The notes beneath the pieces were generated by a model. It was given only the letters and a program-made list of their open reading frames with translations. It did not search any database and had not been told where the DNA came from. The position numbers and the translations under genes were made by a program. A stretch of 64,000 nucleotides of DNA, taken from positions 31,245,382 to 31,309,381 of the forward strand of contig NC_092629.1 in NCBI RefSeq assembly GCF_039555335.1. Reading direction: 5' to 3'. Source of the stretch: Amphiura filiformis (Eukaryota; Echinodermata; Ophiuroidea; Amphilepidida; Amphiuridae). Each line of letters begins with the position of its first letter. The stretch's first letter is position 1. Shown in pieces: positions 1,642 to 46,248 of this stretch.

Positions 1642-1764
1642 CTGTACATATTACATCATCTCCACTGCAACTAGGAATACATGTACATATGAAGGAACCA
1701 ACGGTATTGTTGCAAGCAGCATTTGTGCCACATTTGTCAGTACCCAAAGCACATTCATCAATAT
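1642..1764 (-). CDS. Exon 14: cbEGF 11, with an extra cysteine
   Basis: 123 bp, phase 1-1: [18 protein letters not shown] then [20 protein letters not shown]. The usual NAGYxGDG turn is IPSCSGDD, so the module has seven cysteines and lacks the conserved aromatic Tyr. The donor (GTTAGT) is intact, so the transcript continues beyond the left edge. Confidence 0.85.
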
Positions 1765-23975: not shown

Positions 23976-24235
23976 CTTGATTGATTGATTGATATTTAAT
24001 TTTATTGCCAATTCGTGGACCGTAGGCCAAATTACATACAATAAATTACAATATAAAAATACACATAAGAACAATTAGTATTAAATATTTAGGCAGGCAT
24101 TGCACAAGATATAAAACACACAAAAATATACAATATGAATTAACATTTAGAAAATTGATTATAAAAGTCACTAAAATCGTATTATGAAATATTGCACTAT
24201 TTTTATGTATAAAATGACATTGAAAGTATAATGTA
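23976..24235 (-). mobile_element. LINE 3' end, left part of a split copy
   Basis: On the minus strand this ends in TCAATCAATCAATCA, a LINE microsatellite tail, preceded by an AT-rich 3' UTR with GGCCTACGGTCCACGAATTG. Its continuation towards the 5' end lies right of 31818. The Polinton-like element interrupts it. Confidence 0.65.
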
Positions 24236-24688
24236 AGTAGTTAGATAGACTCTAAAAGTGGTGAAAATTTATAAGCGCTATAAAATTTATAAACGTGATG
24301 TGTTTATAAACGCGTTAAATTTAGAGGCGTATTACCTTAATTACGTGTATCAGATTTATAGGCGTGAGGGGCGTAGAAACATTGGTAAAATATCGCCTTT
24401 TGGATGCAAATATTTCAAGCTCGAGGGGAAAAAACAAATTAGGTCCTTGAATAAATAAAGTTGTTCCGTTATGCAATAAGTATAGCAGTGTATTACGTTT
24501 ATACAGAAACATATAGAATCAAATTCAAGTTGCAAAAGTTTGACCGTTAAGAAAATATTTGACCGAAATGAAAATACAAACGTGTCTTATCCATAGATTA
24601 ATTTTCTTTATAGACGTTTTGTTTTCTTTGTAGAATATATGTATAACGTTATAAAAGGCCTACAACTATCCGAGCTATGTAATATTAA
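24236..24688. repeat. Left terminal inverted repeat of the Polinton-like element
   Basis: 453 bp, matching the right end with about one substitution and one 9-bp indel seen by eye. The outer part is made of TTTATAAACGC-type units; the inner end carries the TATA box of the first gene and stops at AATATTAA. Confidence 0.85.
24650..24657 (+). promoter_or_regulatory. TATA box of the 165-aa gene
   Basis: TATAAAAG at the inner end of the left repeat, 88 bp before the ATG at 24745. Because it lies inside the terminal repeat, the right end carries an inward-facing copy at about 31387-31394. Confidence 0.55.
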
Positions 24689-24744
24689 CCCTGTACTCAA
24701 ACAAATTGAATAAAGAGTAAAAGAACGAACAAACCCGAACAAAT

Positions 24745-25242
24745 ATGGCGTCCGTAGAACCGATGGATTTTGAAGACGAATTTGTATTCGGGGATCGCGG
24801 GGAATTGAAAAAAATTTTACGATCCTTGTACGGAAAATTAATCAAGGAAAATTTCGAAAAAAGGTTGGAAGAGTTACACCGCGGGAGGCGTTGTTTGAAG
24901 GGATTTTCGGCCTTTGCTCAGCAGAAATGTTGCTGCTACGACAAGAGTAGTTATCCTTATTATCATTTCATGGTGGAAGCAGAAAACGACTTGGACCCTC
25001 AATTCTTGTACAATCTTTACACCGAGGTATCCATTTGTTTAGGCCTCGATCTAAATATGATAGATGCGTACGCCGCTATCGACGAATTCAGACAATATAA
25101 CCGATTGACGGAATATCGTGAAATTGATACGTTTATCAAACAATCCGAAGACTCGAAAATGGCCGAACGGTACGCTAGATTTAAGATTCATCGTCGGAAT
25201 GCCCAGGATAAGAGATATTACGAACCGATGGAAACATCCTGA
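24745..25242 (+). CDS. Accessory protein of the Polinton-like element, 165 aa
   Basis: Intact frame from ATGGCGTCC. The protein starts MASVEPMDFEDEFVFGDRGE, is charged, and has a cysteine cluster (AQQKCCCYDKSSYPYYHFMV, about residues 54-73), then a helical acidic part (ENDLDPQFLYNLYTEVSICL). Overall layout (short acidic N-terminus, Cys/His cluster, YxExx helix) parallels the 136-aa protein at 26115, so the two may be distant paralogues. Function unknown. TATA box at 24650. Composition is less AT-rich than the surrounding DNA. Confidence 0.6.
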   Translation: MASVEPMDFEDEFVFGDRGELKKILRSLYGKLIKENFEKRLEELHRGRRCLKGFSAFAQQKCCCYDKSSYPYYHFMVEAENDLDPQFLYNLYTEVSICLGLDLNMIDAYAAIDEFRQYNRLTEYREIDTFIKQSEDSKMAERYARFKIHRRNAQDKRYYEPMETS

Positions 25243-25399
25243 AATTCATGAACGATATAATTCCAGTTAGACGCTCGGGCTGATTCAATCATCCGGGGAC
25301 TGTTTCACGTACCTTTACCATATAAACGACAATAGACAAAGTTGATTTCAAACATCCGGGACCTCTGTAATGGAGATAATTCCGAGGGTCTAATAAACA

Positions 25400-25500
25400 A
25401 ACGGGGTGAAAATTTATAAACGCATCTTGCCCATAGGCTATGTTTTCTTTTTAGGTTATTTAAATAACGATATAAAAGGGGGATACAACGACTCGAGATA
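25400..25500 (+). promoter_or_regulatory. Internal promoter resembling the terminal repeat
   Basis: GTGAAAATTTATAAACGCAT followed by CCCATAGGCTATGTTTTCTT and the TATA box TATAAAAG (25471-25478). The same order occurs in the left repeat (GAAAATTTATAAGCGC far outside, then CCATAGATTAATTTTCTTTA and TATAAAAG). It precedes the small gene region at 25614. Confidence 0.5.
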
Positions 25501-25613
25501 GGTATTAACAACGAACGTAACTTGGCAGTACAATCATCATCATCATAGAGGAATTACATATAAGACGTTTAAGCGATTAATCGAGATGTTGGTTTGAGCG
25601 TACGGACGGTAAG

Positions 25614-25897
25614 ATGAAATTTGTGAAAGATGAAAAAGAATGCGATTGTCCTTACTGCGATCCATTTTTCGGTTGTTGCGGTGCCGGCAGTTTAATCGAT
25701 CAACTTTCGGTGATCATTACTTCAGCGCAGACAACGATATCAAGAAGTACCTTACAGCTGCGAACGAAAAGAGAATATCCCGGAATTTCCGTATCAAATT
25801 GGAACGGTTATTAACGACGACGTTTTCTCGAAAATTCACGATTGGGAAACGGAATCTAGAGCTCTATGCACGATTCATCCTGACGTGTTTTTGCTAA
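25614..25897 (+). pseudogene. Small cysteine-rich gene region of the Polinton-like element, probably broken
   Basis: The start region encodes KECDCPYCDPFFGCCGAGS, a dense CxCxxC..CC cluster that looks metal-binding. The region as a whole looks broken. It has its own TATA box 136-143 bp upstream. Function unknown. Confidence 0.4.
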
Positions 25898-26114
25898 TCG
25901 CGTTGATAAAAATGCACCCTGACTTTTGTATAAAAAAAGAAAAGGAATAATTCAACGAGAGCTACGTATCAGCGGAGGGTTATAGACAATTGTTATCGTG
26001 TTGACACGACGGAGGAGAGACTCGAGAGCAAACTAAAGAAGGAGAGACTATAATAATCGTATATTTTAAAGGGAACATTTTCTTCGCGCAGTCGCAAATA
26101 AAAGCAGGGAACCA

Positions 26115-26525
26115 ATGGCTTCGCCTTACGACACCTCGAGAGAAGGATTTGATGACTCGAAAGAATGGGAAAATTCAGGCAAAAAGCAAGTTCTTCGTAA
26201 CTTTTTATGTTATATCATAGGGGATGAATTGGGGCATTTGTCCGGGACGTTACTGGAAAAGCGCTGTAACGGCTGCATCATCGACCATCCTAGCCAGTCG
26301 CAACATACGTGTTTAGAACTTGACGAAGATGACCCGCTACGAGAGATAGTATACGAGGAAGCTTTCGCCGAACTAGATCTCAACTACGTGCACATCGTGT
26401 TTTTGAAAGTGGCGAACATCCGACGATTAGACGCGAGTTTAATCAATTTTGCGAGACTGCGGAGGAATGCCTCGAAAAATGGAAGGACACTCAGTTTAGA
26501 AATGGATACGCCGGTCGCGGATTGA
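26115..26525 (+). CDS. DHPSQ-motif accessory protein of the Polinton-like element, 136 aa
   Basis: Intact frame, MASPYDTSREGFDDSKEW. Key feature at about residues 50-66: KRCNGCIIDHPSQSQHTCLE, a CxxCxxxxHPSQxxxHxC arrangement likely to bind zinc. From memory, small proteins with a GCxxDHPSQxxHxCL signature accompany Polinton-type elements in invertebrates and fish; I could not check this. The rest is helical with an acidic middle (LELDEDDPLREIVYEEAFAE). No known enzyme motif. Confidence 0.6.
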   Translation: MASPYDTSREGFDDSKEWENSGKKQVLRNFLCYIIGDELGHLSGTLLEKRCNGCIIDHPSQSQHTCLELDEDDPLREIVYEEAFAELDLNYVHIVFLKVANIRRLDASLINFARLRRNASKNGRTLSLEMDTPVAD

Positions 26526-26760
26526 TGCGAATCATGCGTCATTCGCACAAATTTAGTCAGAATCCTGCCCTCGATTCTGAAGCGGTCGCTCTAGCTCGGG
26601 AAAGAGTGGACGGTTTAAAGAAACGATTCCACAAAACTTTGAACTCGTGAACGATGTAAATAACTTTTAATGATATACATTGGCTTTTAAAGAAAGCGTT
26701 AATTGTCAATTTGAATTTGTAAGCGCGACCTAATTGAACGCGCGATGGGAAACAAAATGT

Positions 26761-26790
26761 GTAAATAAAATAAAATAAATAAATAAAATT
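26761..26790 (+). terminator. Clustered poly(A) signals
   Basis: Overlapping AATAAA words (AAATAAAATAAAATAAATAA) about 235 bp after the 136-aa frame; likely 3' end signal for the upstream genes. Confidence 0.45.
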
Positions 26791-26847
26791 GCTTTTTTAT
26801 CGTTTTCTTTACGCGTCAGTCAAAAAAAAAAAAAAAAGAAAAGAAAA

Positions 26848-27063
26848 GAGTAATTAGTAACGAATGAGTAAAATGAGCAACGAATGAGTAAAATGAGTAA
26901 ACGGATGAGTAACGCATGAGTAAAATGAGCAACGAATGAGTAAAATGAGCAACGAATGAGTAATATGAGTAACGAATGAGTAAAATGAGTAAAGGATGAG
27001 TAAAATGAGTAACGGATGAGTAAAGGATGAGTAAAATGAGTAATCGATGAGTAGAATGAGTCA
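26848..27063. repeat. AATGAGTAA minisatellite
   Basis: About 216 bp of near-perfect 10-bp and 20-bp units (AACGAATGAGTAAAATGAGC and variants). It ends about 90 bp before the zinc-finger gene. It opens a long artefact frame on the minus strand. Confidence 0.9.
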
Positions 27064-27154
27064 ATGAGCGTTGAAAAGAGCGGAGTACGGAGCGCCTAAA
27101 TGACCGGTTTCGTTAGTTTCTCGTCATTCATAGATTATCCTTCAAAGAGTCAGC

Positions 27155-27847
27155 ATGAACGCGTTATCCGCTACGGACAAAATATACGCTTGCTCCTCCT
27201 GCGACAGAAGCTTTAGTCGGCGATACAACTTGCAGAGGCACGTTGAAAATTCGCACAAAGTTGGTGACAATCCTGAAATGGAAGCTAATCAACCCGATTA
27301 TTCCGACGTAGATGATTACGAACCTCCGTTTAAAAAGCGCAGGTTTGAGAATTCGGAAGATTCCGAATCTACGGAGGATGAAGATTCCAGCGGAAATTCC
27401 GAGAATGAGGAATCGGAGATGGAAGACGACGAGTTATCGGATGATGACGAGTCGTTTCGCGAACTAGAAGACAACGCCGCGTACAGAGAATGGTACGCGC
27501 AAGCCATGGAAGCCACCGAAGAGATGAGAACTGAAAAATACGAAAAGTACATCAACGAGGGTATGAGCGAAGATGGAGCCAAAGAAAAAGCCGGTAGGAA
27601 GACCCTCTGGGGGGTCAAGCGCATCTTCTTCAATCACTACGAAGACTTTTTGACGAGTTATATGCATTTGAAAGACGACGATACTCACCTAGATGTCGTG
27701 GAAGATCTCGAAGGAAGAGTAGATAAAGGCATGGACGTAGACAAAGCCATGAGGAGAGTGATACCTAAATACCGGGCCAACTTTGAGGCACTGTTTCAAC
27801 AAGACGAAGAGGACGATTACGAGGACATCGAAGGCGATGACCATTAG
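27155..27847 (+). CDS. C2H2 zinc-finger acidic protein of the Polinton-like element, 230 aa
   Basis: Intact frame. Residues about 11-35 are one C2H2 finger: YACSSCDRSFSRRYNLQRHV then ENSHK. Next comes an acidic Ser/Glu/Asp stretch with a basic patch (PPFKKRRFE, a likely nuclear signal), then a helical C-terminal region: YEKYINEGMSEDGAKEKAG and LTSYMHLKDDDTHLDVVEDL. I recall such one-finger acidic proteins with a GMSEDxAxxxA segment among Polinton-associated genes of marine invertebrates, unverified. Likely nuclear and DNA-binding; possibly a transcription factor of the element. Confidence 0.65.
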   Translation: MNALSATDKIYACSSCDRSFSRRYNLQRHVENSHKVGDNPEMEANQPDYSDVDDYEPPFKKRRFENSEDSESTEDEDSSGNSENEESEMEDDELSDDDESFRELEDNAAYREWYAQAMEATEEMRTEKYEKYINEGMSEDGAKEKAGRKTLWGVKRIFFNHYEDFLTSYMHLKDDDTHLDVVEDLEGRVDKGMDVDKAMRRVIPKYRANFEALFQQDEEDDYEDIEGDDH

Positions 27848-28088
27848 AAACCAAATCATTCACTACAGGATATTGTAATTTAATCTAATAGCGTTTCTAA
27901 AATGATCTCGACTCGAAAGCTACCGTAAATCTTGTATAAATATTACGTTCGGCTTCAAAGAAGGAGAGAAACCTCGTGTCGAAAACTACGAATATATTCT
28001 TTCTCCAAATCGGACGAGGAACAAGAGATCGCACATTCTCACCAACTATCCCGAAGATCGGAAATCTGTTATCGCTATCAAAAACCAA

Positions 28089-28096
28089 TATAAAAG
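28089..28096 (+). promoter_or_regulatory. TATA box of the 95-aa gene
   Basis: TATAAAAG 74 bp before the ATG at 28170, followed by CGTGACTGAACCG around the expected start site. Third use of the same octamer in this element. Confidence 0.5.
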
Positions 28097-28169
28097 ACAA
28101 AGTATAACGTTGTGGGGAAGAACGCACCGTGACTGAACCGCAGACTTTATTGCTTTAGTACTGACAGTA

Positions 28170-28457
28170 ATGTCTACAATGACGGAATGGGTCAGTCCCG
28201 AAAATGACTTCGGAGAACTCGGACGACCTTTGCATCGAAGCGTCTGTAACGGCAGCTACGAAGATTTAATCGTTGGAAGAAACGTCTACCGAATGATAAA
28301 CATTTGTACAACTCTGAATGAAATGAATCGCGAACGCGAAGAATGTACGGATTGTAAGACGTTACGAAGTCTCTCCGAAAAGATCAACTCTATTAGACAG
28401 CATCCTGATTACGTATCAACTTTGGATTGGACTTTAAAAAAATGGAGCGTCGGTTGA
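28170..28457 (+). CDS. 95-aa protein of the Polinton-like element
   Basis: Begins MSTMTEWVSPENDFGELGRP; a CxxC pair occurs in ECTDCKTLRSLSEK. Mostly helical, no recognised domain. May be incomplete at its 3' end. AATAAA signals follow at about 28769 and 28793. Confidence 0.45.
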   Translation: MSTMTEWVSPENDFGELGRPLHRSVCNGSYEDLIVGRNVYRMINICTTLNEMNREREECTDCKTLRSLSEKINSIRQHPDYVSTLDWTLKKWSVG

Positions 28458-29089
28458 AGGTTTCAAAACATTGATGGAAGAAGTATTTACGGAAAAACAG
28501 CAAGGATCTTCAAAAAATTCTTACAGAGCTTTGACTTTACTCGTATGTACTTTCGACGTATGCGCCGGAATTAAAGACAACGACCTGAGAGAGATATTCT
28601 TATAACGGTAGACAAATGCGTAACGAGACAAAACATTGATTGGGGGGTCTTGTTGAATGACGATGATCGTTACTATACTACAAGGTGGGATATTTTCAAA
28701 ACTATAAGCGTAAAATGTTGTACATTTTTTCTTAATTATTACTCGTATTATCTCAATAACTCGTAAAAAATAAACGTTGAGAAGGATGATATAATAAAGT
28801 TTTGTGAAGAACCCATACCGATGATAGCGTCGAGTATTTTCATTGTTTTTTAAGTGTCTCCATAGTAACTGGTAGACTTGACCGAGTAGTTATGGTGTTC
28901 TTAAGATAACATTTTCAATGAATCTTTGGAAAAAAAAACATGTAGGCCTATAAAACTTAAATCGTTTCTTTTTGCGAACTCCCATTAAAGTCAAGGTATA
29001 TAATTTACCGTGACATTTAAGGGCGCCATTTGCTCATCGGATCCTATTACATTGCAGGTACATATCTGTAGGCATATTATACCCCTCTA

Positions 29090-30045
29090 TATGCAGTTAG
29101 CAGCCTGGACAACCGATTCTTTTGTTCTGCAAGGCTCACTCAGTCATTTAATGAGGCAATACAAACGATCGAATTTGGTGTTGAAATGAGCTAAATTTTG
29201 AGTTACACCTTTTCAATGTAAAATTAATTTTCTCGGCCAAATAAAAAGCAATCATTTTCATTTTTTCAGTACATGTCAGGTCAAATTGTAGCGCTTGATA
29301 CTGTATTTTTTTCAAATCCTAGTGTTAAACTTAGGCGTGAAATTCAGTCATTTCGTGTAAGATTTTCGATTTTGATAGGCTTAAACTCTGTCCGCGAGCC
29401 TTTTTTTTTGGATCAAATTCCCAGACCTATAGCGCTCCTACTGATCATGTTTAACCAGAACACCCAATTGGGGATTTAATCGCTGGTCGGGCAATTTGCT
29501 TTCAATGAAAAATTGACCTGGATAACAACAAAGGAAATATCGACTATTTCTGCTGGTTGCTCTCGAGATAAAAGTACTGATTTGACATTTTCCGAGCATG
29601 AATGGAAAAAGGGTAAAACAAAAACGGAAATTCTGACAAAACTATAACATATAGACCCACACGATGTGCTTTACAGAGGTGGGAAATATCTTTCTTTAGC
29701 AAACTATATTAGTTTGAGACGCTAAAACATGAATTCCGTAAAAAGCTCGCAGGCGAATTCAAGGCCTATAAAAATCAAAAATATCACACTAAAAGACACA
29801 ATTTGATGCTTAATTTTAACACCAGGATTTTTAAAAAAAAATGTATATACAAGCACCAAGTTTTTAACTGTCATTACTGAAGAAAAAAAAATTATTGCTT
29901 TATATTTGACCGAGAAAATTAATTTCATAGCAAAAAGGTGTATCTCTGAATTGTGCTGATTTTACATGTATCGATCGACTTTTAGCGCGACTAAGCATTT
30001 CTAAAGAATTGGTTGTCCAGGCGGCTGACTGTATGAAGCATGTTA
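29090..30045. repeat. Fold-back insertion inside the Polinton-like element
   Basis: Left arm about 29090-29500 (AGCCTGGACAACCGATTCTT ... TTTTTCAAATCCTAGTGTTA) pairs imperfectly with about 29720-30045 (TTAACACCAGGATTTTT ... AAGAATTGGTTGTCCAGGCG). Arms of 300-400 bp, loop about 200 bp. No coding capacity. Confidence 0.65.
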
Positions 30046-31356
30046 AATCATAGACAATTGTTAAATGCACTATAAACCGATGATGCGTGAACGACATAAT
30101 AGTCCCTAGAGCTCTGAGTTGCTTAATTGGGGGGGCGTGGCACTATGCGTAATTATAGGACTCCATTTATACTAAGGGCTAACATTGCAAAGGTAAACAA
30201 AACAAAACAAACAAAAAATCATCCGAGAGGAAATCACCATAAGTTATCGATACCAGTGCCAAAGCTTTGGACCAATGCTAAGTAACTAGATCCTGTTTAA
30301 GGTATTACCCACCCTATACACCTTACAAAGAACATGGATGTACTAGAGACGCTACACTGCTCTAAGATTAGGACTCCCAAAATTACCCATCCACCGGACG
30401 CCCCCTTAACACTGCCTCGAGGTGAGGCCACGCTCTATAAACCGGATAAACCTATACTATGATTTGCACTTCCCTGTTCTGACGTAACTATCAACCAGTA
30501 AATGATAATTAAGGTGTTTCCTAACTGACCGCTTCTAAACAAAGCAAATGGCTCTTGGCCTCAGGAAGTTCAACTGTGATGTATGTAAGATAATGGGGGA
30601 TATTGTTTACAGAAAATGTAATCGTGCATGGGGCAAGGTATTGGTGTCCTTTTCTTAGTTAAAACAAACATTCACTGTTACCAGACAATTCTATAAAACA
30701 TACCACAGAACTTTCTTTCTAAGTGGTATTTGTGCAAAGCGATATGAGCAACAGAAGGTAATGTTTGACTTAATTTTTGAACTGAAAAAAAAAATACTCG
30801 TTTGATATGGATTGATCATAATTACAAATACTATGATGGACTACCGGTGGAATATGGTGGACATTGCATGAATTTAACCAAAGGAATTATAATAATTATA
30901 CAATTATTGTACTATCATAAATAATACAATTATTGTACTATCATAAATGGACATTAATACCTATGTATGCGGCACTCCATATAAACCGGGATGCGTGGAG
31001 TCTTCTGGAATAAGCAGAACTGAATTTTGCGCAAGATTTTCGACAACCAGAACCACATCGAACGTACATCTCGCGATTTAACGTTTATTTTTTTCAATCA
31101 ACGATTAAAGGAAAACAAAGACGTGACAATGAGATCTACAGACAGTACTAAACCACGAATAACAACGATATAGTATTTGTTTTTGTCCGTCGATCGGATA
31201 TACAAATTTATTTACACGCCGTGTCAATGCATCTACTATTGAATTTATATTACAATTTACATGTACTATTCTATCATAATATATTTAATGGAAATAGAAT
31301 GTTCGGTATCATCTTCCGAATGAAAATAACGGGATCTCGTCCAAGTTGTTGCTGAC
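30046..31356. other. Right part of the Polinton-like element, no gene seen
   Basis: No substantial frame. A 28-bp tandem pair (ACAATTATTGTACTATCATA repeated) lies at about 30898-30948. It should receive transcription from the inward-facing TATA box of the right repeat, but I find no matching gene. Confidence 0.5.
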
Positions 31357-31818
31357 TTAATATTACATAGCTCGGATAGTTGTAGGCCTTTTATAACGTT
31401 ATACATATATTCTACAAAGAAAACAAAACGTCTATAAAGAAAATTAATCTATGGATAAGACACGTTTGTATTTTCATTTCGGTCAAATATTTTCTTAACG
31501 GTCAAACTTTTGCAACTTGAATTTGATTCTATATGTTTCTGTATAAACGTAATACACTGCTATACTTATTGCATAACGGAACAACTTTATTTATTCAGGC
31601 ACGTATAGGACCTAATTTGTTTTTTCCCGTCGAGCTTGAAATATTTGCATCCAAAAGGCGATATTTTACCAATGTTTCTACGCCCCTCACGCCTATAAAT
31701 CTGATACACGTAATTAAGGTAATACGCCTCTAAATTTAACGCGTTTATAAACACATCACGTTTATAAATTTTATAGCGCTTATAAATTTTCACCACTTTT
31801 AGAGTCTATCTAACTACT
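31357..31818. repeat. Right terminal inverted repeat of the Polinton-like element
   Basis: 462 bp, inverse match of 24236-24688. The extra length comes from a 9-bp insertion near 31600 (GCACGTATA). Confidence 0.85.
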
Positions 31819-31824
31819 AGTGTA

Positions 31825-33950
31825 TGCAGAACAATTCTGGGTGGCAAAGCAAAAACACAAACTATTTATTAATGAGATCAACGAAATACGGAAGAGGACT
31901 GTATTTAAAACGACTTGTCCTAGTCCTAAACTGAGATAATTTGCTGCAATTACGTAAAAGCACGACCATGACACTCCTTCCTGGTAGGAGGGATAAGAGA
32001 ACTTGTACGATTTGTTTTGGTAAGCCCTTCGGCGAACCTAAGACAGTGCTCCTCCCTCCTATCAGAGAGGGTGTCAAACTTGCAGACTTGAAGCGCATTA
32101 CTGTAAGATAAATAGTGCCGACCCAGAATTGTTCTGTAGGCACGTTTTTGGATGGCCTCTATTTCTTTGGACTGTTTAGCTGAGATTCCAGAATGCCACA
32201 CCACATCAGAGTACTCAAGAATTGGCCTGACATAACCACTATATACGACACCGAGCTCTTGGTTGGTAAAACCAAAACGCTTAAGGGTTCGTAGCATGAA
32301 CAACCGGGAATTAGCCTTTTTAACATCGCGTCCATCTGGACATTCCATTTAAGGTTGTTCTGTAGCCACAAACCAAGTACCTTGGTTTCGGTGACGTATG
32401 ATAGTGGTTCAGTGCCAATTCTTCGCGATGTGGCGGCAATGGATTAGAAAAAGCAATTTGAATGGCTTGACACTTGCTGGGATTCAATTTCAGGTGGCTG
32501 TCACTAGCCCACTCTGATAACCGATCAAAATCGCCCTGAAGTGGACTAGCACAACCACCAGAAAAATTCTCAGCAAATGTCAAGTCATCAACATATTTCC
32601 AACACCGACTACCAGCGTCTTGTGCTGCTTCATTAATAAGAATCTGAAACCCAATTGGGCCAAATTTTGTACCCTGGGTTACACCACCATGAAGAGTTGT
32701 ATAATCTGAGAGCATACTGTTGTATCTGACACACTGTTGACGGTTACGGAGGAAATCGCAAATCCAAGGAACAATGGACCTACGGACTCCCATATCGATG
32801 ATCTTACCAATAAGAAGCGTATGGTCGACGAGGTCGTACGCCTTCGAGAAATCCGTAAGTACCACCGTTCCTATGTTGCGACTCTTTCCGCTCCCTGGAA
32901 AAGAAAATGAACAAGAGAAACTAAATAATGAGAAGTTGACACTCCTTTTACATTACCATATTGGCGGATGTCAATATCATTTTGAATATCGTTTAGGACC
33001 CAATCAGTAATGAAACCTTCAGCTATTTTGGCAAAAATTGATGTGAGCGAGACAGGTCTCAACTTATCAATACTTGGTGGATACTGTTTAGGAATAGGGA
33101 TGACAATTGCTTTCTTCCACTGCTCAGGAACATAACCCTCACTATAAGAATTATTCAAAATATCGGTAAGCGGCACACTTAACTCATATGCAAACTCTTT
33201 GACCAGTTTGGGCGGAACTTGATCAGGACCGCAAGATTTGGCAGACTTAAGTTTACGTAACTCAGCATAAACTTCCCATGGGTATAACTGAGGACTGGTT
33301 CTTCAGCAGGAAGATAAGATGGTAAGCTGCTACAGTCGAGAGGATCTAAACAATCAGACACATGAGCGAACCTGGAATTAATAGCATTGGCAATGCCTTT
33401 CAAATCTTTGTCCTCAATACCCTGGATGTTTATCTTGAGATCAGGTTTGCTGGAGTTTGTGACAGTTCTAATTTGTTGATGCCATTTTCTTGGTTCTGTT
33501 GTTTGCAAGTTCCTAATTCTGGTGGCATGATAGTGAAGTTTAGCTTTTTCAATTTCACGTTTTACTAAATTTCTAAGTTTGCGCCACTGCTGCTGGTCTT
33601 TATTTGCAAATGCAACTTGACGCTCATGAATAAGCTTCTTAATATGTGGTGTTAGCCACGGTTTGTCATTGTCATGCATTTTTGTTTTCTTAACAGGAAA
33701 ACAGGAATCAATAGCAATTTCAAGCATTGAATACAACACATCAACTTTATTTTGTGTATCACAACACTCAAGAACCTCATGCCAATCTTGATCCTGAACC
33801 CACTGACCAAAAGCACTCATGCCAGATTTCTGCAAAGGGCGTGACTTGTTGATCTTAAAAGTGTTTTTAGTTTTGGCCTGAAACTGGGGTTTCCACAAGA
33901 CACAAACATGATCACAAAACCCCAAGGGTGACATTGGAATGTCACCCTTG
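31825..33950 (-). mobile_element. LINE (CR1/L2 group), 5'-truncated, right part of the split copy
   Basis: Minus strand, in order: end of the endonuclease (LGFCDHVCVLWKPQF, where the family has SDH), connector, RT with DFSKAYDLVDHTLL, GGVTQGTKFGPIGFQ and KYVDDLTFAE, then the C-terminal part (SGYVRPILEYSDVVWHSGI, QKRAYRTILGRHYLSY, RTSRFKYSPLPYFVDLINK then stop at 31862). YVDD replaces YADD, as in several CR1-like families. At least three frame breaks and one small inversion-like palindrome at the 5' joint. The 3' UTR is cut by the Polinton-like element and resumes at 24235. Confidence 0.8.
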
Positions 33951-33952
33951 GG
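33921..33952. repeat. Perfect 32-bp palindrome at the LINE 5' joint
   Basis: CCCAAGGGTGACATT, GG, AATGTCACCCTTGGG: 15-bp arms without mismatch. It sits where similarity to LINE coding sequence stops. Confidence 0.85.
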
Positions 33953-33957
33953 ATTGT

Positions 33958-34090
33958 TAGTATAATCCAAAAACGGCTTGATCAATTCTCCTGTTTTAAA
34001 GTTTGGAACATAGGCTGATTAGTTATGCATCAAGTGAGCGGGTTTTGTTGCTGCTGTTTATCATCTTCATTGCAAAATGCAGTCATTTAC
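33958..34090. repeat. Right copy of the 125-bp direct repeat
   Basis: TATAATCCAAAAACGGCTTG to GCAGTCATTTAC. See 23487-23612. It leads directly into the repeat-associated gene at about 34180. Confidence 0.65.
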
Positions 34091-39383: not shown

Positions 39384-39677
39384 TTACTGAGCCTGTAGGT
39401 GTGCTTTGAATGCTTGGTTACTTGGAGCTTGGATTATGTTTTCTTTGAGGTTATTCCACTGGGGTATTGTTCGTGGGAAGAAAGAATACTTGTGACTTTG
39501 GAGTCTGGTCTGATGTTGGATAAAACTTCTGGAGTTGCAGCGGCGAGAAGGTCGGGTAACTGGCGTTAGGTAACGGTCACTGGGGATGTCCACCTCATCG
39601 TTGATGATCTTATACAACAGGGTCAGACGTGCAGATCTTCTGCGGTCCTCCAGCGACTGCCACCCAAGGTCTTTCAA
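39384..39677 (-). CDS. LINE ORF C-terminal part
   Basis: LGWQSLEDRRRSARLTLLYK, then HKYSFFPRTIPQWNNL and a stop at 39384. Standard CR1 C-terminus (SFFPRTIxxWNxL). A short 3' UTR and hexamer tail follow. Confidence 0.85.
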   Translation of the reverse strand: MKDLGWQSLEDRRRSARLTLLYKIINDEVDIPSDRYLTPVTRPSRRCNSRSFIQHQTRLQSHKYSFFPRTIPQWNNLKENIIQAPSNQAFKAHLQAQ

Positions 39678-39685
39678 GAGAGTTG

Positions 39686-40210
39686 TTACCGTCCCTTGGT
39701 GCGTTCATAGTTTGACTTGACAAAGCGAGCAGCACTTCTCTGGATCTTCTCCACTTTCGCCTTGTTGTTCTTCTGGTGAGGATCCCAGATCACGGAGCCG
39801 TACTCAACGTGGGGTCTAACAAGGCTGAGGTAGGCTGTCTCCTTCAACTTCTCTGGACAGTTTCCAAGGTTTCGACGAACCACACCGAGCATTCTGCTTG
39901 CTTTGGATGTTGCAGAGCCAATCTGAGTATTCCATCCTAGATCATCCTGAAGATGGATTCCCAAGTATGGATGTGACTTCACGACGGCGAGTGTCTGGTT
40001 GCTCAGCTTGTAGTCATGGTGTACTTGACTTCTAGCGTTGGATACATGCATCACATAACACTTGCTTGGATTAAATTGCATCTGCCAGTCGTGTTGCCAC
40101 TTGGTAAGATGGTCTAGGTCAGCTTGGAGAGCTTCAGCATCGGTTGGTGAAGAAATGGTTCGGTATACAAGGGCATCATCTGCAAATAGACGTGCTGTTG
40201 ATGTTAACAC
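39686..40210 (-). CDS. LINE RT palm (FADD) and thumb
   Basis: ARLFADDALVYRTISS is RT motif C (YADD as FADD), followed by QMQFNPSKCYVMHVSNAR, HPYLGIHLQDDLGWNTQI and LVRPHVEYGSVIWDPHQKNN. Confidence 0.85.
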   Translation of the reverse strand: MLTSTARLFADDALVYRTISSPTDAEALQADLDHLTKWQHDWQMQFNPSKCYVMHVSNARSQVHHDYKLSNQTLAVVKSHPYLGIHLQDDLGWNTQIGSATSKASRMLGVVRRNLGNCPEKLKETAYLSLVRPHVEYGSVIWDPHQKNNKAKVEKIQRSAARFVKSNYERTKGR

Positions 40211-40646
40211 CTCTGGTAAGTCGTTGATGTAGAGAAGAAAAGGAGCGGTCCAAGGACCGTTCCTTGTGGAACTCAGAGTCGACGGAAACTGCAGATGAAG
40301 TTCTACCTTCTAGCACTACTCTCTGGGATCGGTCTTGAAGAAAGGATGATATCCAGGACAGCAGCTGATTGTTTATGCCGTAGTACTTGAGTTTGGAGAG
40401 GAGGCGGAGATGAGGCACGGTGTCAAATGCCTTTGTGAAGTCGAGTATGATGACATCCACGCTCTTTCTCTGGTCCAAGGCACTGCTGAGATCATGATGT
40501 GTGATTAGCAGCTGTGTATCACATGAACGCCGTTTCCGAAATCCATGTTGCTGGTCAGATAAGATACGATGGTGGTCAAGATGATTCATGATTTGGCTGT
40601 GGATGGCATGTTCCATGGTTTTACAGGAAATACTCGTCAACGACAC
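40176..40646 (-). CDS. LINE RT fingers and palm
   Basis: SLTSISCKTMEHAIHSQIMN, then QHGFRKRRSCDTQL and VDVIILDFTKAFDTVPHLRL (RT motif A with its Asp). The frame slips before the GVPQGTVLGPLLF-like block. Confidence 0.85.
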   Translation of the reverse strand: MSLTSISCKTMEHAIHSQIMNHLDHHRILSDQQHGFRKRRSCDTQLLITHHDLSSALDQRKSVDVIILDFTKAFDTVPHLRLLSKLKYYGINNQLLSWISSFLQDRSQRVVLEGRTSSAVSVDSEFHKERSLDRSFSSLHQRLTRGVNINSTSICR

Positions 40647-42102
40647 AGGTCTGTAGTTTTAGCGTCCGCTCTATCTCCTTCTTGAAGATTGGTGTAATGT
40701 TGGCTGATTTCCAATCTTGCGGTAAAACTCCTGATTGAAGAGATTGGTTGTATATGAATGTCAACACTGGTGCAAGTTGAGGAGCAAGCGTCTTCAAAAT
40801 ACGACTCGGAATTCCATCTGGCCCAGCGGCTTTTGAAGGATTGAGCTCGGAGAGCAACTTCTCCACTCCTGGTACCGTGATCTTGAAGTTTGGCATAGGA
40901 GGAAAAGGGCTAGGACCTTTCTCGGGTATGCAGGTGGTATCCTCTGTTGTAAATACCGATTTGAAATACGAGTTCAAAATTTCACATTTCCCTGTTGCAT
41001 CTGACGTCAATTGTCCGTTGTGGCGAAGAGTTGAGATTCCACTGCTGTTATCTCTCTTTATGCCTCGTTTGACGTGACGCCAGAAAATCTTCGGATTCTC
41101 TTCCATTTTTGGTCCAAGGATGTTGCTAATGTATTGGTTGTAACAGCTCCTCATTTTAGTTTTGACTAACTTCTGGAGATGGATGTACTTCTCCCACACG
41201 CGGCTGCTGTTAGATTCTTTGCTTTTCTTGTGCCACCGGTTTTTCTGCCGTATTATGTGCTTCAATTCCCTTGTCATCCATGGAAGATCACTACTAGCTC
41301 TGATGGTCTTCATGGGAATGTGATCCTTAGCCATCTTCATTACACAGTCTCTAAACTGGATCCAGTTGTCTTCAACAGAGTTCCGTTCAGGGTCTGAGTT
41401 GAGGAAGGATGAGCAGAACTCATGAGCATCATTTATTAGTTCTTCTGTGTTCATCTTTCTGTACAGGAAGATCTTTCGTGGTGGTGTCTTTGAACGTTGA
41501 GGCTGGATGTCAACTGCTATCAGGATTGTGTCATGTTTGCATGCACCGAGGCCTGGCATATGAAAGATATCTTGTACTGTTGTTGGATTTGTAGTCAAAA
41601 ATAAGTCAATAAGGCTTTCAGCATCTTCTGTGCGGTGCGTAGGCTGCGTAACCATCTGAGTCAAGTTATTACTGGTGGTGATTTCCAGTAACTGGTGGCA
41701 GAGTGCACTCTTATTGGCATACTTCATGACAGTGGTCGTACTCCAATCAATATCCCCCAAGTTGAAATCACCGCCTAGCCACACATTCGGAGATTTAACA
41801 CTTCCATGGAGACTGGCGAGGGACTTGTCAAGTTGCTCTAAGCTGCTTGAACCATCATCCGGTGGTCGGTAGAAACATCCCAAGAACACTGATTTGGTAC
41901 CCTTCATCTGGAGTTGAGCCCACACTATTTCGCAATCTGCATCCAAATCAGGACGGTGCGTAAGTATGAGGTCATTTCGGTAAGCTATGAAAACTCCACC
42001 ATGTCCTCTTCCAGAAGTACGGTCCTTACGGATGACCCCATAATTTTCAGGGAAAATTTCACCATCAAGAATATTCGGAGTCAACCAGGATTCAGTTCCC
42101 AT
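40621..42102 (-). CDS. LINE endonuclease and start of RT
   Basis: Minus-strand frame of 493 codons. Endonuclease motifs in order: GTESWL (catalytic Glu), FYRPPDD, LGGDFNLGDIDW, and LGACKHDTILI where the family has SDH, so the catalytic Asp appears replaced by Lys. RT starts PSKAAGPDGIPSRILK and LPQDWKSANITPIFKK, after which the frame breaks. Confidence 0.85.
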   Translation of the reverse strand: MGTESWLTPNILDGEIFPENYGVIRKDRTSGRGHGGVFIAYRNDLILTHRPDLDADCEIVWAQLQMKGTKSVFLGCFYRPPDDGSSSLEQLDKSLASLHGSVKSPNVWLGGDFNLGDIDWSTTTVMKYANKSALCHQLLEITTSNNLTQMVTQPTHRTEDAESLIDLFLTTNPTTVQDIFHMPGLGACKHDTILIAVDIQPQRSKTPPRKIFLYRKMNTEELINDAHEFCSSFLNSDPERNSVEDNWIQFRDCVMKMAKDHIPMKTIRASSDLPWMTRELKHIIRQKNRWHKKSKESNSSRVWEKYIHLQKLVKTKMRSCYNQYISNILGPKMEENPKIFWRHVKRGIKRDNSSGISTLRHNGQLTSDATGKCEILNSYFKSVFTTEDTTCIPEKGPSPFPPMPNFKITVPGVEKLLSELNPSKAAGPDGIPSRILKTLAPQLAPVLTFIYNQSLQSGVLPQDWKSANITPIFKKEIERTLKLQTCVVDEYFL

Positions 42103-42911
42103 GATGATATCAGGATCTGAGGATTCAATAAGGTTCTCCAGTTCCTTGTCTTATTCTTGATGCTTTGACAGTTCACAACAATCACCTTGAGTTTCTTGCC
42201 TATGATGTTCTTTCTGTGTTTTGAGGAGGATGTAGTACACGTTGACTTCAACGAAGAAGTACGTCTCTTGGCGCCGTTAGGGTTAACAACCTTTGGAGAG
42301 GAAGTAGCTGACGGGGCTCCCATCCACAGCTCAGTTTCATCAATGGTGGTGTTAGACAAAGGTTCAAAAGAGTTGGAATGCGTAAAGTCAAAGAACCCGC
42401 CTAAGATGCTGAGACTGAAGTTGGGCGTGCCACATGCACAACAAATCCATGAAGCTTCAGTTTTATTTAAGCTAATATATTCATCTGTAGTCATTAACAT
42501 ACAATCCTTGTGATACCACTTACAGCATGTATCGCATCTAATAGCCTGCTGTCCCCACTTGCATGCAAGCTTGCATACTTGGCATGGATACTTCAAAGGG
42601 CGTGGCCCAGGGTTAGTTTCAAGGTCGCCAGCTTGAAGAAGCAGAAAAGTACACAAGAAATGCAGCAACACATTTTTATCAGATCTTACTACGTCAATGT
42701 TACACTTATGGGAGTTGTAAAGTAACACCTGGAAGTGATTGGCACTATCTATTACCGATGTCATGGAACTGTTTATCTTGAAGTTGTTTCCAGGGTAAAT
42801 ATCATCATCTTGCACAATGTAACTTTCATTTACTAATTTTGCATACGAGTTCACTGTAGTATATAGTAGAATACCAACAGCATACAATATAAAAACTGCT
42901 TTGACATCCAT
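42081..42911 (-). CDS. LINE ORF N-terminal part: leader, 2A, PHD finger
   Basis: 276 codons from ATG 42911. Residues 1-24 form a signal-like leader (MDVKAVFILYAVGILLYTTV). Residues 95-103 are GDLETNPGP, the 2A consensus DxExNPGP, encoded at 42629-42603. Residues about 108-166 are a C4HC3 PHD finger (YPCQVCKLACKWGQQAIRCD, CKWYHKDCM, WICCACG). The endonuclease starts LKVIVVNCQSI near residue 236. A one-base loss near 42140 shifts the frame, and the downstream frame continues at 42102. Confidence 0.85.
   Translation of the reverse strand: MDVKAVFILYAVGILLYTTVNSYAKLVNESYIVQDDDIYPGNNFKINSSMTSVIDSANHFQVLLYNSHKCNIDVVRSDKNVLLHFLCTFLLLQAGDLETNPGPRPLKYPCQVCKLACKWGQQAIRCDTCCKWYHKDCMLMTTDEYISLNKTEASWICCACGTPNFSLSILGGFFDFTHSNSFEPLSNTTIDETELWMGAPSATSSPKVVNPNGAKRRTSSLKSTCTTSSSKHRKNIIGKKLKVIVVNCQSIKNKTRNWRTLLNPQILISSWELNPG
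42603..42629 (-). other. 2A-like ribosome-skipping motif
   Basis: Encodes GDLETNPGP; the Gly-Pro bond would not be formed during translation, releasing the 102-residue leader from the PHD-EN-RT protein. The preceding residues (LHFLCTFLLLQA) are hydrophobic and Leu-rich, as in many 2A sequences. Known from 2A-bearing non-LTR elements of sea urchin and other animals. Confidence 0.8.
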
Positions 42912-43014
42912 TATGAAGAAAGGAAGAATGGTTGGATCTCACCTGGATTACCGCTGCTCCCCAGTCATGTTGTGATCATCGATTGTTCATTCACTTTGAC
43001 TTAGTTTATGTATC

Positions 43015-44577
43015 ATGCGTCCTTTTTGCTATAACCGCGACCTTTTCAATCGTGTTTGCAAAGGTGTGATCAACAACTGTTTCACTAAAGGATCGCAATC
43101 GAAAAATCATTACCAAGTGAATATTCGTGGTTGTCGTGGTGGAACTCATAAAAAGCGTAAAATTCAACAGGTCCTTAATCCAAGAAAGGACATTCACCTT
43201 CAAAATAACTTTGCTAGAACTGTTAATAAAAGTAATCTTCTTCAGATTCCACTTCTTTCATCAAATGAAATCCGCAAGAAGTGCTGCACTAGACTAGCAT
43301 CATGGAACACACGATCAATGCAAAAGAAAGCAACCCATGTATGTGATCTTATTATCTCCGAAAAACTTGACATACTCTCTGTCACGGAAGCGTGGCTTAC
43401 TGGATATGATCGTGACAACCATGTCCTTGCCGACATTAAAGTTACCCTCCCTGATTATGAAGTCCACTGTGCCCCAAGAATTGCTAGATCAGGGGGTGGT
43501 TTATGCATCGTTTATCGAAAGGGATTCCAGGTTAGAGAGTATACTTCTGCAAAGTTCCAGTCGTTTGAGTGTCTGGATCTTCTAATAACTTCTACAAACC
43601 AATCGTCCTTCCGCTTATTGACAATTTATCGTCCACCTCGCTCGAAGGCTAATCCAATCACTATGACGCAATTCTTCAGTGACTTTTCTTTGCTACTGGA
43701 GGATCTGTCTGCTTACTCAGGAAAGTTCGCTGTCGTCGGTGATTTTAATATACATGTTGATGATCTGAAAGATTCTGATGCCACTACTATGCTAAACATC
43801 TTGATGTCAGCAGATCTTGTGCAACACATTAAGGGTAGTACTCACAAACATGGTCATACACTTGACCTCATCATTTCGCGAGAGTGTGATGATTCAGTCA
43901 GTGATCCTTTCACAGTTCATGGTCTTAAATCTGACCATTCTGCTGTGTGCTGTACCATTAATGTTTTCCAACCTCAGCCGGGTAAACGTGTCATCAGATC
44001 TCGTAAACTTCGCGATATTAACAGAGTAGTCATGCAAAATGATATCAAGTCGTCTTCTTTGTTTAATGATCATGAAGATCGTGATCTTTCAGCTCTTGTT
44101 AAAACGTACGACTCGGTGCTTCATGATGCATTTGACAAACATGCACCTGAATGTGAACGTGAAATATCCCTCCGGCCGCACGCACCTTGGTACGATGACA
44201 GTCTCCGTGCTTCAAAAAGAGAGAAACGTCGTCTGGAAAGAAAATGGATCAAGTCTGGTCTTACTATTGACAAACAGATTTTTCATTCTTTCTGTTCCGA
44301 CTATCGTACATCACTAGAGTCTGCAAAGCGAGTATATTACAACACAAAACTTTCGAATTGTAATCAACGCGAACTGTTTCGCACTGTTGACAAGCTCACC
44401 ACTGCTAAGCCAGCCAAGACCCTTCCGGACTCCAATTCTCTTCAGAGCCTCACCAGGCAGTTTCAAGATTTCTTTGATTCAAAAGTAGACAATATTCGCT
44501 CGCAACTTGTCACTTCTGATCCGGGAACTATGTCTGTTGATGTATCTGACTCCTGCACAACTGAGTCCGGGAACTGA
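43015..44577 (+). CDS. LINE endonuclease and connector, 520 codons
   Basis: Basic N-terminal part (NIRGCRGGTHKKRKIQ), then AP-endonuclease motifs ASWNTRSMQKK, VTEAWLTGYDR, TIYRPPRSKA, FAVVGDFNIHVDD and LKSDHSAVC (intact SDH). Connector: HAPWYDDSLRASKREKRRLE. All visible catalytic residues are kept, so this domain is younger-looking than that of the neighbouring LINE. A frame shift separates it from the RT. Confidence 0.9.
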   Translation: MRPFCYNRDLFNRVCKGVINNCFTKGSQSKNHYQVNIRGCRGGTHKKRKIQQVLNPRKDIHLQNNFARTVNKSNLLQIPLLSSNEIRKKCCTRLASWNTRSMQKKATHVCDLIISEKLDILSVTEAWLTGYDRDNHVLADIKVTLPDYEVHCAPRIARSGGGLCIVYRKGFQVREYTSAKFQSFECLDLLITSTNQSSFRLLTIYRPPRSKANPITMTQFFSDFSLLLEDLSAYSGKFAVVGDFNIHVDDLKDSDATTMLNILMSADLVQHIKGSTHKHGHTLDLIISRECDDSVSDPFTVHGLKSDHSAVCCTINVFQPQPGKRVIRSRKLRDINRVVMQNDIKSSSLFNDHEDRDLSALVKTYDSVLHDAFDKHAPECEREISLRPHAPWYDDSLRASKREKRRLERKWIKSGLTIDKQIFHSFCSDYRTSLESAKRVYYNTKLSNCNQRELFRTVDKLTTAKPAKTLPDSNSLQSLTRQFQDFFDSKVDNIRSQLVTSDPGTMSVDVSDSCTTESGN

Positions 44578-45175
44578 GTTCGCGAAATTTCGTAATGTGG
44601 CAGATGACGAAGTTCGCAAGATTATCATGCAGTCTTCGAAAACATCTTGCACCCTGGATCCAATTCCGACACCGCTTCTCGCTGAGATACTGGATTCGAT
44701 CTTACCCGTCATCACGAAGATTACCAATGAGTCGTTTTCAAGTGGTTATATCCCTGCTGAGTTGAAAGTGTCGTTGGTTTCACCTCTGATCAAGAAGCCT
44801 ACATTAGACTCAAATGTGCTGGCGAACTATCGTCCAATATCAAACCTGCCATTTTTGCATAAAGTTTTGGAGCGTGCTGCGGTTCTTCAAATTCAGCAAT
44901 ATCTGTCTGAAAATAACTTGCATGCAAAAGCCCAATCTGCTTACCGACAGTTCCACAGCACCGAGACAGCTCTAGTTCGTGTCACAAATGACATCCTTCG
45001 TGCCGTTGATAAACATTGTGAAGTCATGCTGGTGCTGTTGGATCTGTCGGCAGCTTTCGACACGATTGATCATCATGCGCTCCTTCGCCGTCTGAAATCG
45101 CTTCGGTATTTGTGGCCTTGCACTCAAGTGGCTGGAGTCATATTTTCACGAGCGTCAACAGTATGTTGTGATTGA
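44507..45175 (+). CDS. LINE RT, N-terminal part
   Basis: SCTLDPIPTPLLAEI, then ELKVSLVSPLIKKPTLDSNV, NYRPISNLPFLHKVLERAAV, QSAYRQFHSTETALVRV and LVLLDLSAAFDTIDHHALLR (motif A). The frame then shifts; the following bases still spell VTRGVPQGSVFGPLAF and CIIYADDTQV up to about 45330. Confidence 0.9.
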   Translation: MSLLIRELCLLMYLTPAQLSPGTEFAKFRNVADDEVRKIIMQSSKTSCTLDPIPTPLLAEILDSILPVITKITNESFSSGYIPAELKVSLVSPLIKKPTLDSNVLANYRPISNLPFLHKVLERAAVLQIQQYLSENNLHAKAQSAYRQFHSTETALVRVTNDILRAVDKHCEVMLVLLDLSAAFDTIDHHALLRRLKSLRYLWPCTQVAGVIFSRASTVCCD

Positions 45176-45478
45176 TGGTACGAAATCTAATCCTGTACCC
45201 GTGACACGTGGTGTGCCACAAGGGTCGGTGTTTGGCCCTCTCGCTTTTACAATGTATATATCACCCATTGAAGAAATTGTAGAAGCCCACGGCTTACAGT
45301 GCATTATTTATGCAGACGATACACAAGTGTAGGCCCTATATCACCTTCAAATCTTGTGAATTGGACAACGTTGTACCCATTGTCGAAAGCTGTGTAAAAG
45401 ATATCAAGTGCTGGATGGTGAAAAACATGCTTATGCTAAACGACAGCAAAACAGAGATTTTGCATCTTCATTCTCGTT

Positions 45479-46180
45479 TTGTACCAACAACACCGATTTC
45501 TTCTCTCCATATCGGCGACTTCGACCCGGGACTTCGACGTTGAAACAACATCTTCAGCTCGCAACCTCGGTGTTGTTATTGACAGCAACGTAACCATGTC
45601 CAAGCATGTCAGCAGTGTCTGCAAGAGTGCTTCGTTTGCGCTGTACAAGATTGGTAGACTGCGTAGTTTCCTTGATCAACCTTCAACAGAGAAATTGGTA
45701 CACGCCTTCATCACCTCGCGATTAGACAACTGCAATTCGCTCCTGTTTGGTCTTCCGAATTCTGAATTGGATAAATTACAGCGAATACAAAATTCGGCTG
45801 CGCGTTTGGTTACCAGAGTAAAAGGCCGTTGTCATATGAAACCTGTGTTGCGCCAACTCCACTGGCTGCCTGTGAAGAAAAGAATTATCTTCAAAATTCT
45901 TCTGCTTAATACCTATAAAGCCATCCACGGTTTCGCGCCTGATTACATCAAGGAGATCATTGTAGTTCGCAAGCCTACTCGTACCCTTCGTTCATCGTCT
46001 GAAGTGCTTCTAAAACCACCGCCAGTTACATCACTCAAGACTGCTACATACGGCTATCGCGCATTTTCGTCATCCGCGCCGTCACTTTGGAACAAACTCC
46101 CACCATTCATTCGCGGTTCAAAATCTATTGAGCAGTTCAAGACCAGCTTAAAAACGCATTTATTCACGCTGCCAGATTAA
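45479..46180 (+). CDS. LINE RT thumb and C-terminal part
   Basis: SARNLGVVIDSNVTMSKHVS, LVHAFITSRLDNCNSLLFGL, LQRIQNSAARLVTRV, LRQLHWLPVKKRIIFKILL and SSSAPSLWNKLPPFIRG, ending THLFTLPD then stop. This is the usual CR1/L2-group C-terminus. Confidence 0.9.
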   Translation: MYQQHRFLLSISATSTRDFDVETTSSARNLGVVIDSNVTMSKHVSSVCKSASFALYKIGRLRSFLDQPSTEKLVHAFITSRLDNCNSLLFGLPNSELDKLQRIQNSAARLVTRVKGRCHMKPVLRQLHWLPVKKRIIFKILLLNTYKAIHGFAPDYIKEIIVVRKPTRTLRSSSEVLLKPPPVTSLKTATYGYRAFSSSAPSLWNKLPPFIRGSKSIEQFKTSLKTHLFTLPD

Positions 46181-46248
46181 TCTGATTTCACAGTTTGGGG
46201 TTTTATATTTTGATGTACCTAGCTATTATACAACCATTTTTCATGTAT

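What the first reader, a model, noticed from the sequence alone, without database searches (positions are those of the whole stretch)
24236..31818. A 7.6-kb Polinton-like element with accessory genes but no core genes
Long AG-initial inverted repeats and a 6-bp target duplication fit Polintons, and the small genes (DHPSQ-type zinc motif, one-finger acidic protein) resemble what I remember as Polinton companions. Yet I see none of the replication, integration or particle genes. It may be a satellite that borrows functions from full elements, or a compact undescribed element type.
Basis: partly seen in the sequence, partly recalled or inferred. Interest (0 to 1): 0.85.

Follow-up and report, generated by a model that had tools for sequence, protein, structure and literature searches.

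The report
Core-less Maverick (Polinton) transposon copy
A 7.6-kb piece of what looks like an animal genome has the ends of a Maverick/Polinton virus-like transposon and a few small genes but none of the core replication, integration or capsid genes, so it looks like a defective copy that could only have moved with help from a complete relative.

Summary
The element is real. Inverted repeats of 453/462 nt (452 identical positions, one mismatch, one 9-nt gap) bound 24236-31818. The flanking duplication is 5 of 6 bases, not perfect. No core gene was found in 101 stop-to-stop frames scanned with Pfam, and the 2.75 kb behind the last gene cannot hold a core set. Five small rightward gene candidates follow the left repeat, three with a TATAAAAG box 81-143 nt upstream. 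Two are open throughout (165 and 230 aa). The 136- and 95-aa frames called intact are probably parts of frameshifted genes. The 230-aa protein (one C2H2 finger, acidic linker, helical domain) belongs to a conserved family: 17 clusters, 61 sequences, best 89% identical. No relatives of the others were found. Best reading: a non-autonomous, probably decaying Maverick derivative that kept its ends and some small genes. Whether it moved core-less, as a satellite, or lost its core after landing cannot be settled: no host genome or second copy is held.

The parts
24230..24235 (.). left copy of target duplication, AATGTA (5 of 6 with the right copy)
   Evidence: sequence
24236..24688 (+). left terminal inverted repeat, 453 nt, beginning AGTAGT; carries an inward-facing TATAAAAG box at 24650
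24745..25242 (+). gene 1, 165 aa, open; no relatives found
25399..25479 (+). second promoter-like stretch (TATAAAAG at 25471) resembling parts of the TIR
   Evidence: families D4 and D8; (67 nt, 75% to the TIR)
25614..25950 (+). gene candidate 2, spread over three open frames (25614-25811, 25634-25894, 25714-25947): apparently frameshifted
   Evidence: weak similarity of one piece to gene 1
26115..26650 (+). gene 3; 136-aa frame with CNGCIIDHPSQSQHTC (26265-26312), overlapped by the open frame 26333-26647: apparently frameshifted
26852..27061 (+). tandem repeat, unit about 20 nt (AATGAGTAACGAATGAGTAA)
27155..27847 (+). gene 4, 230 aa, open; one C2H2 finger, acidic linker, conserved helical C-terminal domain
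28170..28605 (+). gene candidate 5 (weakest: no codon-position signal); 95-aa frame, then open frame 28441-28602: apparently frameshifted; TATAAAAG at 28089
28606..31356 (.). 2.75 kb with no recognisable coding sequence
29091..30034 (.). nested inverted-repeat structure (arms 29184-29404 / 29740-29962 at 76%, outer arms 29091-29122 / 30003-30034 at 88%), probably an old MITE-like insert
31357..31818 (-). right terminal inverted repeat, 462 nt, ending ACTACT on the + strand; TATAAAAG at 31395 on the minus strand with no gene of note behind it
31819..31824 (.). right copy of target duplication, AGTGTA
   Evidence: sequence

Best explanation
It is a non-autonomous derivative of a Maverick/Polinton. 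Shown: both ends (long TIRs, (AGT)2//(ACT)2 termini, a 6-bp duplication with one mismatch) and a left array of small inward-pointing frames are present, and no core gene was found. Inferred: a full-length Maverick lost its middle, keeping the cis-acting ends and what was its left accessory region. The ends would be replicated from a terminal protein by the protein-primed polymerase of a full-length partner, the (AGT)2 repeat serving the jump-back step, and joined to a staggered 6-bp target by the partner's integrase. The small genes would be early or regulatory accessory genes run from TATA promoters, one of which sits in the TIR. In this copy three of five candidates appear frameshifted, so it is probably decaying. 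That it is Maverick-derived is likely (about 0.85). That it last moved already core-less, with enzymes supplied in trans, is about even.
For: AGTAGT/ACTACT ends and 453/462-nt TIRs match the published vertebrate Maverick end motif and TIR size (46-1,447 bp, mean 402, in 134 intact elements; PMC8097293). Near-identical TIRs: 1 mismatch in 453 positions plus a 9-nt gap. No core family among 40 plus 61 stop-to-stop frames in Pfam at E <= 0.05. Element 7,583 bp against 12,723-24,620 bp for intact vertebrate elements, most of which have accessory regions of diverse ORFs beside the core modules. The 230-aa family has 17 clusters with up to 23 members each, which fits a repeated-element gene, though repeated sampling of one species could give the same.
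Against: The target duplication has one mismatch. No protein of the element was matched to a known Maverick protein, so the assignment rests on the ends alone. No second copy and no full-length partner were seen: the genome is not held, the element has no match elsewhere in the window, and the first 20 nt of the end have no exact match in viral contigs. No known Maverick was run through the same scans as a positive control.
Confidence: 0.7

Rival explanations
1. A complete Maverick inserted here, and a large internal deletion then removed its core in place. It never moved in the core-less form and is simply a dead copy. (This also counts as Maverick-derived, so its odds overlap those of the best explanation.)
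For: Three of five gene candidates look frameshifted. In the vertebrate survey 96% of Maverick loci are eroded (PMC8097293). Only one copy is seen.
Against: The TIRs have only 1 mismatch and one 9-nt gap, leaving little time; the 2.75 kb of non-coding DNA with a 76% nested inverted repeat looks older than that, though arms of such inserts need not start identical.
Confidence: 0.3
2. A true satellite: a core-less element kept as a stable lineage whose small proteins are selected, for example to redirect a full Maverick's polymerase and capsid to itself.
For: The 230-aa protein is open and deviates at 1 of 23 columns invariant among the others, no more than its 17 relatives (0 or 1 of 19-23). 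The 165-aa frame is open.
Against: Three of five gene candidates look broken. The conservation of the 230-aa family shows selection on the family, not selection in a core-less element. No sister copies seen.
Confidence: 0.12
3. A different DNA transposon superfamily with long TIRs and a 6-bp class duplication, unrelated to Mavericks.
For: No protein links it to Mavericks; from memory (no call), other superfamilies such as IS3EU and Dada also make duplications of about 6 bp.
Against: No transposase gene was found either; the 6-nt end motif matches the Maverick one exactly (chance 1 in 4,096 by arithmetic). Ginger elements differ: metazoan Ginger1 and Ginger2 make 4-bp duplications and Ginger1 begins TGTNR (PMC2836005, passages).
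Confidence: 0.08
4. Assembly artefact: a mis-joined or consensus-error-ridden Maverick, with the middle lost in assembly and the frameshifts being read errors.
For: The frames that follow each other stay open, so frameshifts rather than stop substitutions break them; an A run (28436-28442) lies just before the end of the 95-aa frame.
Against: No one-base indel separates the two TIR arms over 453 positions, which include homopolymer runs, although shared systematic errors would not show there. The near-duplication closes the element.
Confidence: 0.05

Closest known systems
Maverick/Polinton elements (vertebrate Mavericks, PMC8097293)
   Same: (AGT)2//(ACT)2 ends, long TIRs of typical size, 6-bp class target duplication, small ORFs beside an end
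   Different: 7.6 kb instead of 12.7-24.6 kb; no polymerase, integrase, ATPase, protease or capsid gene found; duplication has one mismatch
Adintoviruses (as defined in PMC11071296, section read)
   Same: placed by that paper in the broader consortium traditionally called polinton-like, typified by PolB and integrase
   Different: none of the defining PolB, Hexon and integrase was found, so it cannot be filed there
Non-autonomous DNA transposons (MITE and deletion derivatives of cut-and-paste elements; general knowledge)
   Same: works like one: cis ends kept, enzymes missing
   Different: multi-gene interior and Maverick-type ends
Ginger1/Ginger2 transposons (PMC2836005, passages)
   Same: integrase-related eukaryotic DNA transposons with TIRs
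   Different: 4-bp duplications in metazoans, TGTNR start (Ginger1), a transposase gene; none of these seen here

Membership tests
Maverick/Polinton | long terminal inverted repeats (46-1,447 bp in intact vertebrate elements) | tested here: met
   453/462 nt; range
Maverick/Polinton | end motif (AGT)2//(ACT)2 or (AG)3//(CT)3 | tested here: met
   AGTAGT...ACTACT; motif from PMC8097293
Maverick/Polinton | 6-bp target site duplication | tested here: inconclusive
   AATGTA/AGTGTA, 5 of 6
Maverick/Polinton | protein-primed DNA polymerase B | tested here: not met
   0 of 101 stop-to-stop frames match a polymerase in Pfam at E <= 0.05; no positive control run
Maverick/Polinton | RVE-family integrase | tested here: not met
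   0 of 101 frames
Maverick/Polinton | packaging ATPase, cysteine protease, major and minor capsid proteins | tested here: not met
   0 of 101 frames in Pfam; I did not check that Pfam holds Maverick-specific capsid models, but 2.75 kb of residual space is too small for the set
Maverick/Polinton | length 12.7-24.6 kb (intact vertebrate elements) | tested here: not met
   7,583 bp
Maverick/Polinton | accessory genes homologous to those of full elements | not testable with these tools
   17 relatives of the 230-aa protein found but their contigs could not be fetched; no loci in viral contigs or genome contigs
Non-autonomous Maverick derivative mobilised in trans | further copies sharing internal structure, and a full-length partner with the same ends | not testable with these tools
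   host genome not held
Adintovirus | PolB with OTU-like domain, adenovirus-like Hexon, integrase with chromodomain | tested here: not met
   definition from PMC11071296; no polymerase or integrase match; whether Pfam covers adintovirus Hexon was not checked

The most novel reading that the evidence does not exclude
A capsid-less, polymerase-less satellite of an animal Maverick: a lineage that keeps the protein-primed ends and up to five small regulatory proteins, replicates and integrates with a full Maverick's enzymes, and may be packaged by it, an animal counterpart to satellite elements that parasitise larger viruses.
Probability: 0.12. Interest if true: 0.75.

Novelty: new member of a known kind. 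Interest (0 to 1): 0.4.

Why it matters
Core-less Mavericks that moved would show that the ends alone suffice for mobility and would give simple markers for present-day Maverick activity in animals. If sister copies share this layout and their genes are under selection, it would be a candidate Maverick satellite. The 230-aa family, whose conserved C-terminal domain no Pfam family claimed above its cut-off, is also a usable probe for accessory regions in unannotated elements.

Tried and rejected
Searches without result: relatives of the 136-aa protein (viral contigs; protein database, 7 candidates, none at E <= 0.01; phages; motif pattern in viral contigs); of the 165-aa protein (viral contigs; protein database, 13 candidates, none at E <= 0.1); of the 230-aa protein as loci (single sequence; alignment in viral contigs; in genome contigs); of the 95-aa frame and the 26333-26647 frame in viral contigs. 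NCBIfam: nothing for 8 proteins or pieces at E <= 0.1. PHROGs: nothing better than E 0.019 for 6. Pfam's 'Actin_micro' hit on the 230-aa protein (E 0.0022, 17.7 bits against a cut-off of 27; 3 of 18 family members) stretches 72 profile positions over residues 8-202; rejected. Other weak hits among family members (C2HC_ASCIZ in 2 of 18, and singles such as DDHD and ComFB) were not pursued. Single weak Pfam hits to circovirus ORF4, TIL, IFNGR1 and CLN3 among the 101 frames (E 0.0041-0.023) were taken as chance. A relation between the small genes: of 36 pairs tested by shuffling (300 shuffles each, best 12 printed), gene 1 against a gene 2 piece was reached by 1 shuffle, gene 1 against gene 3 by 3, a gene 3 piece against the 230-aa protein by 3; after 36 tests this is suggestive only, and BLASTP of gene 1 against gene 3 gave E 0.51. 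The solved-structure search with the family (192 sequences at E <= 1, 60 shown) gave zinc fingers and, at E 0.015, ornithine aminotransferase chains over residues 163-219, which I took as chance. A literature search for 'HPSQ' (108 papers, 20 listed) showed mostly questionnaires; one listed title concerns transposons of Verticillium (PMC3441728), which I did not open. A search for six phrases on non-autonomous or defective Polinton/Maverick found only 'Polinton-derived', in 3 papers. These cover only the open PMC library.
Full report
Boundaries. Aligned, the arms (453 and 462 nt) differ by one substitution and one 9-nt gap; BLAST gives 97.8% over 462 columns, that is 452 identical. The element has no other match in the 64-kb window (E <= 0.01). 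Outside the arms lie AATGTA and AGTGTA, so the 6-bp duplication is 5 of 6.

Ends. The element begins AGTAGTTAGATAG and ends CTATCTAACTACT. A survey of vertebrate Mavericks (PMC8097293; [quoted passage not shown] It explains the end repeats as serving the jumping-back step of protein-primed replication. The window element meets the motif and TIR criteria and fails the size criterion. The host here is unnamed and need not be a vertebrate; that it is an animal is my inference from the LINE retrotransposons around it.

Missing core. Polintons are described as encoding a protein-primed polymerase, RVE integrase, FtsK-like ATPase and cysteine protease (PMC4028283, passages). All stop-to-stop frames of at least 35 codons in 28440-31370 (40 frames) and of at least 38 codons in 24236-28500 (61 frames) were scanned with Pfam at E <= 0.05. 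Apart from the C2H2 finger of the 230-aa protein there were only single weak matches (E 0.0021-0.023), none to a polymerase, integrase, ATPase, protease or capsid family. Shorter frames, and the right TIR as such (a near copy of the scanned left one), were not scanned, and no known Maverick was run as a positive control. Outside the element, 64 frames of at least 85 codons gave only reverse transcriptase, endonuclease and PHD-finger matches at E <= 0.001, which fits ordinary LINE retrotransposons; no Maverick partner was found in the window.

Genes. Five gene candidates run rightward from the left TIR. Three have TATAAAAG 95, 143 and 81 nt before the start codon (at 24650, 25471, 28089); a fourth copy lies in the right TIR facing inward (31395), being the partner of the first. 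Four of the 11 occurrences of this word in the window fall in the element, which is 12% of its length. The stretch before gene 2 resembles the TIR promoter (67 nt, 75%), so gene 2 and its promoter may be a duplicate of gene 1; a piece of gene 2 shows weak similarity to gene 1 (reached by 1 of 300 shuffles, 36 pairs tested). Genes 1 and 4 are open throughout. Candidates 2, 3 and 5 each continue in another open frame, most simply read as frameshifts; with no relatives to compare, this is inference. G+C at the three codon positions dips at the second position in gene 1 (0.45, 0.32, 0.48), both gene 3 pieces (0.54, 0.32, 0.51 and 0.52, 0.39, 0.48) and gene 4 (0.55, 0.31, 0.54), but not in the 95-aa frame (0.42, 0.41, 0.42), which resembles the two non-coding controls (0.38, 0.38, 0.36; 0.42, 0.36, 0.35); gene 2, counted in one frame across its breaks, is uninformative (all). 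Candidate 5 is therefore the weakest.

The 230-aa family. A protein-database search with residues 95-230 gave 17 clusters at E <= 0.1 among 56 candidates, all at E 1.2e-30 or better, standing for 61 member sequences; one cluster has 23 members and another 10. The closest is 89% identical over the alignment. Nineteen columns are invariant, all between residues 105 and 172. Eleven of the 18 aligned proteins match the Pfam C2H2 finger; the other seven, as given, begin within or after it. The AlphaFold model has a mean pLDDT of 68 and pTM 0.47, with a confident helical region (block means 90-96 over residues 111-160) and a low-confidence, probably disordered acidic linker. The window copy deviates at 1 of 23 columns invariant among the others; 8 of its 17 relatives also deviate at one and 9 at none. 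A KKRR patch after the finger suggests a nuclear protein (inference). Five of the 17 clusters have contigs of 16.5-57 kb, but these could not be fetched, so a Maverick context is untested.

The rest. Between gene 5 and the right TIR lie 2.75 kb without recognisable coding sequence, 0.94 kb of it a nested inverted-repeat structure with arms 76-88% alike. The contrast between young TIRs and an old-looking interior weakly favours the view that the interior was already core-less when the ends were last made identical; inserts whose arms were unequal from the start would remove that argument.

Judgement. It works like, and very probably derives from, a Maverick, but it fails the gene-content tests and should be called a non-autonomous derivative, not a Maverick or an adintovirus. 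Satellite status needs a second copy. Searches of the open PMC library for Polinton/Maverick with non-autonomous, satellite or internal-deletion terms showed nothing directly comparable in what I saw (25 of 32, 15 of 15, 3 of 3 and 15 of 62 papers listed, titles and starts of abstracts; passages from PMC4028283, PMC10175614, PMC2871265, PMC6431247, PMC8504770, PMC10294476 and PMC2836005). PMC8504770 reports only short fragmented Maverick copies with polymerase or integrase domains in a midge. I recall, without a call to support it, that repeat databases list some non-autonomous Polintons, which is why I rate this a new member of a known kind.

Noticed in passing
26852-27061: Tandem array of about ten 20-nt units (AATGAGTAACGAATGAGTAA) between genes 3 and 4 of the element.
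   Followed up: no
29091-30034: Nested inverted-repeat structure, arms 76-88% alike, probably an old MITE-like insert; no clear target duplication was identified.
   Followed up: partly
26541-26567 and 27249-27275: 27-nt stretches 85% alike (D7) that fall in the same codon phase of the gene 3 continuation frame and gene 4 (RHSHKFSQNP / ENSHKVGDNP); may be chance or a short gene conversion.
   Followed up: partly
24265-24323: Inside the TIR, 17-nt repeats with TTTATAAACGCG; a related stretch recurs at 25399-25423 before gene 2 (D8). Candidate protein-binding sites.
   Followed up: no
32323-34018 and 39387-46177: LINE retrotransposon remnants: reverse transcriptase in 4, endonuclease in 2 and a PHD finger in 1 of 64 frames outside the element (which does not name the frames; the places are my reading).
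   Followed up: partly
1614-3190 and 7536-10480: Family of local direct repeats, one pair about 1.7 kb long at 87% identity (7541-9255 / 8741-10462).
   Followed up: no
46234-46763: Three 177-nt tandem copies at 96% match beside a LINE frame.
   Followed up: no
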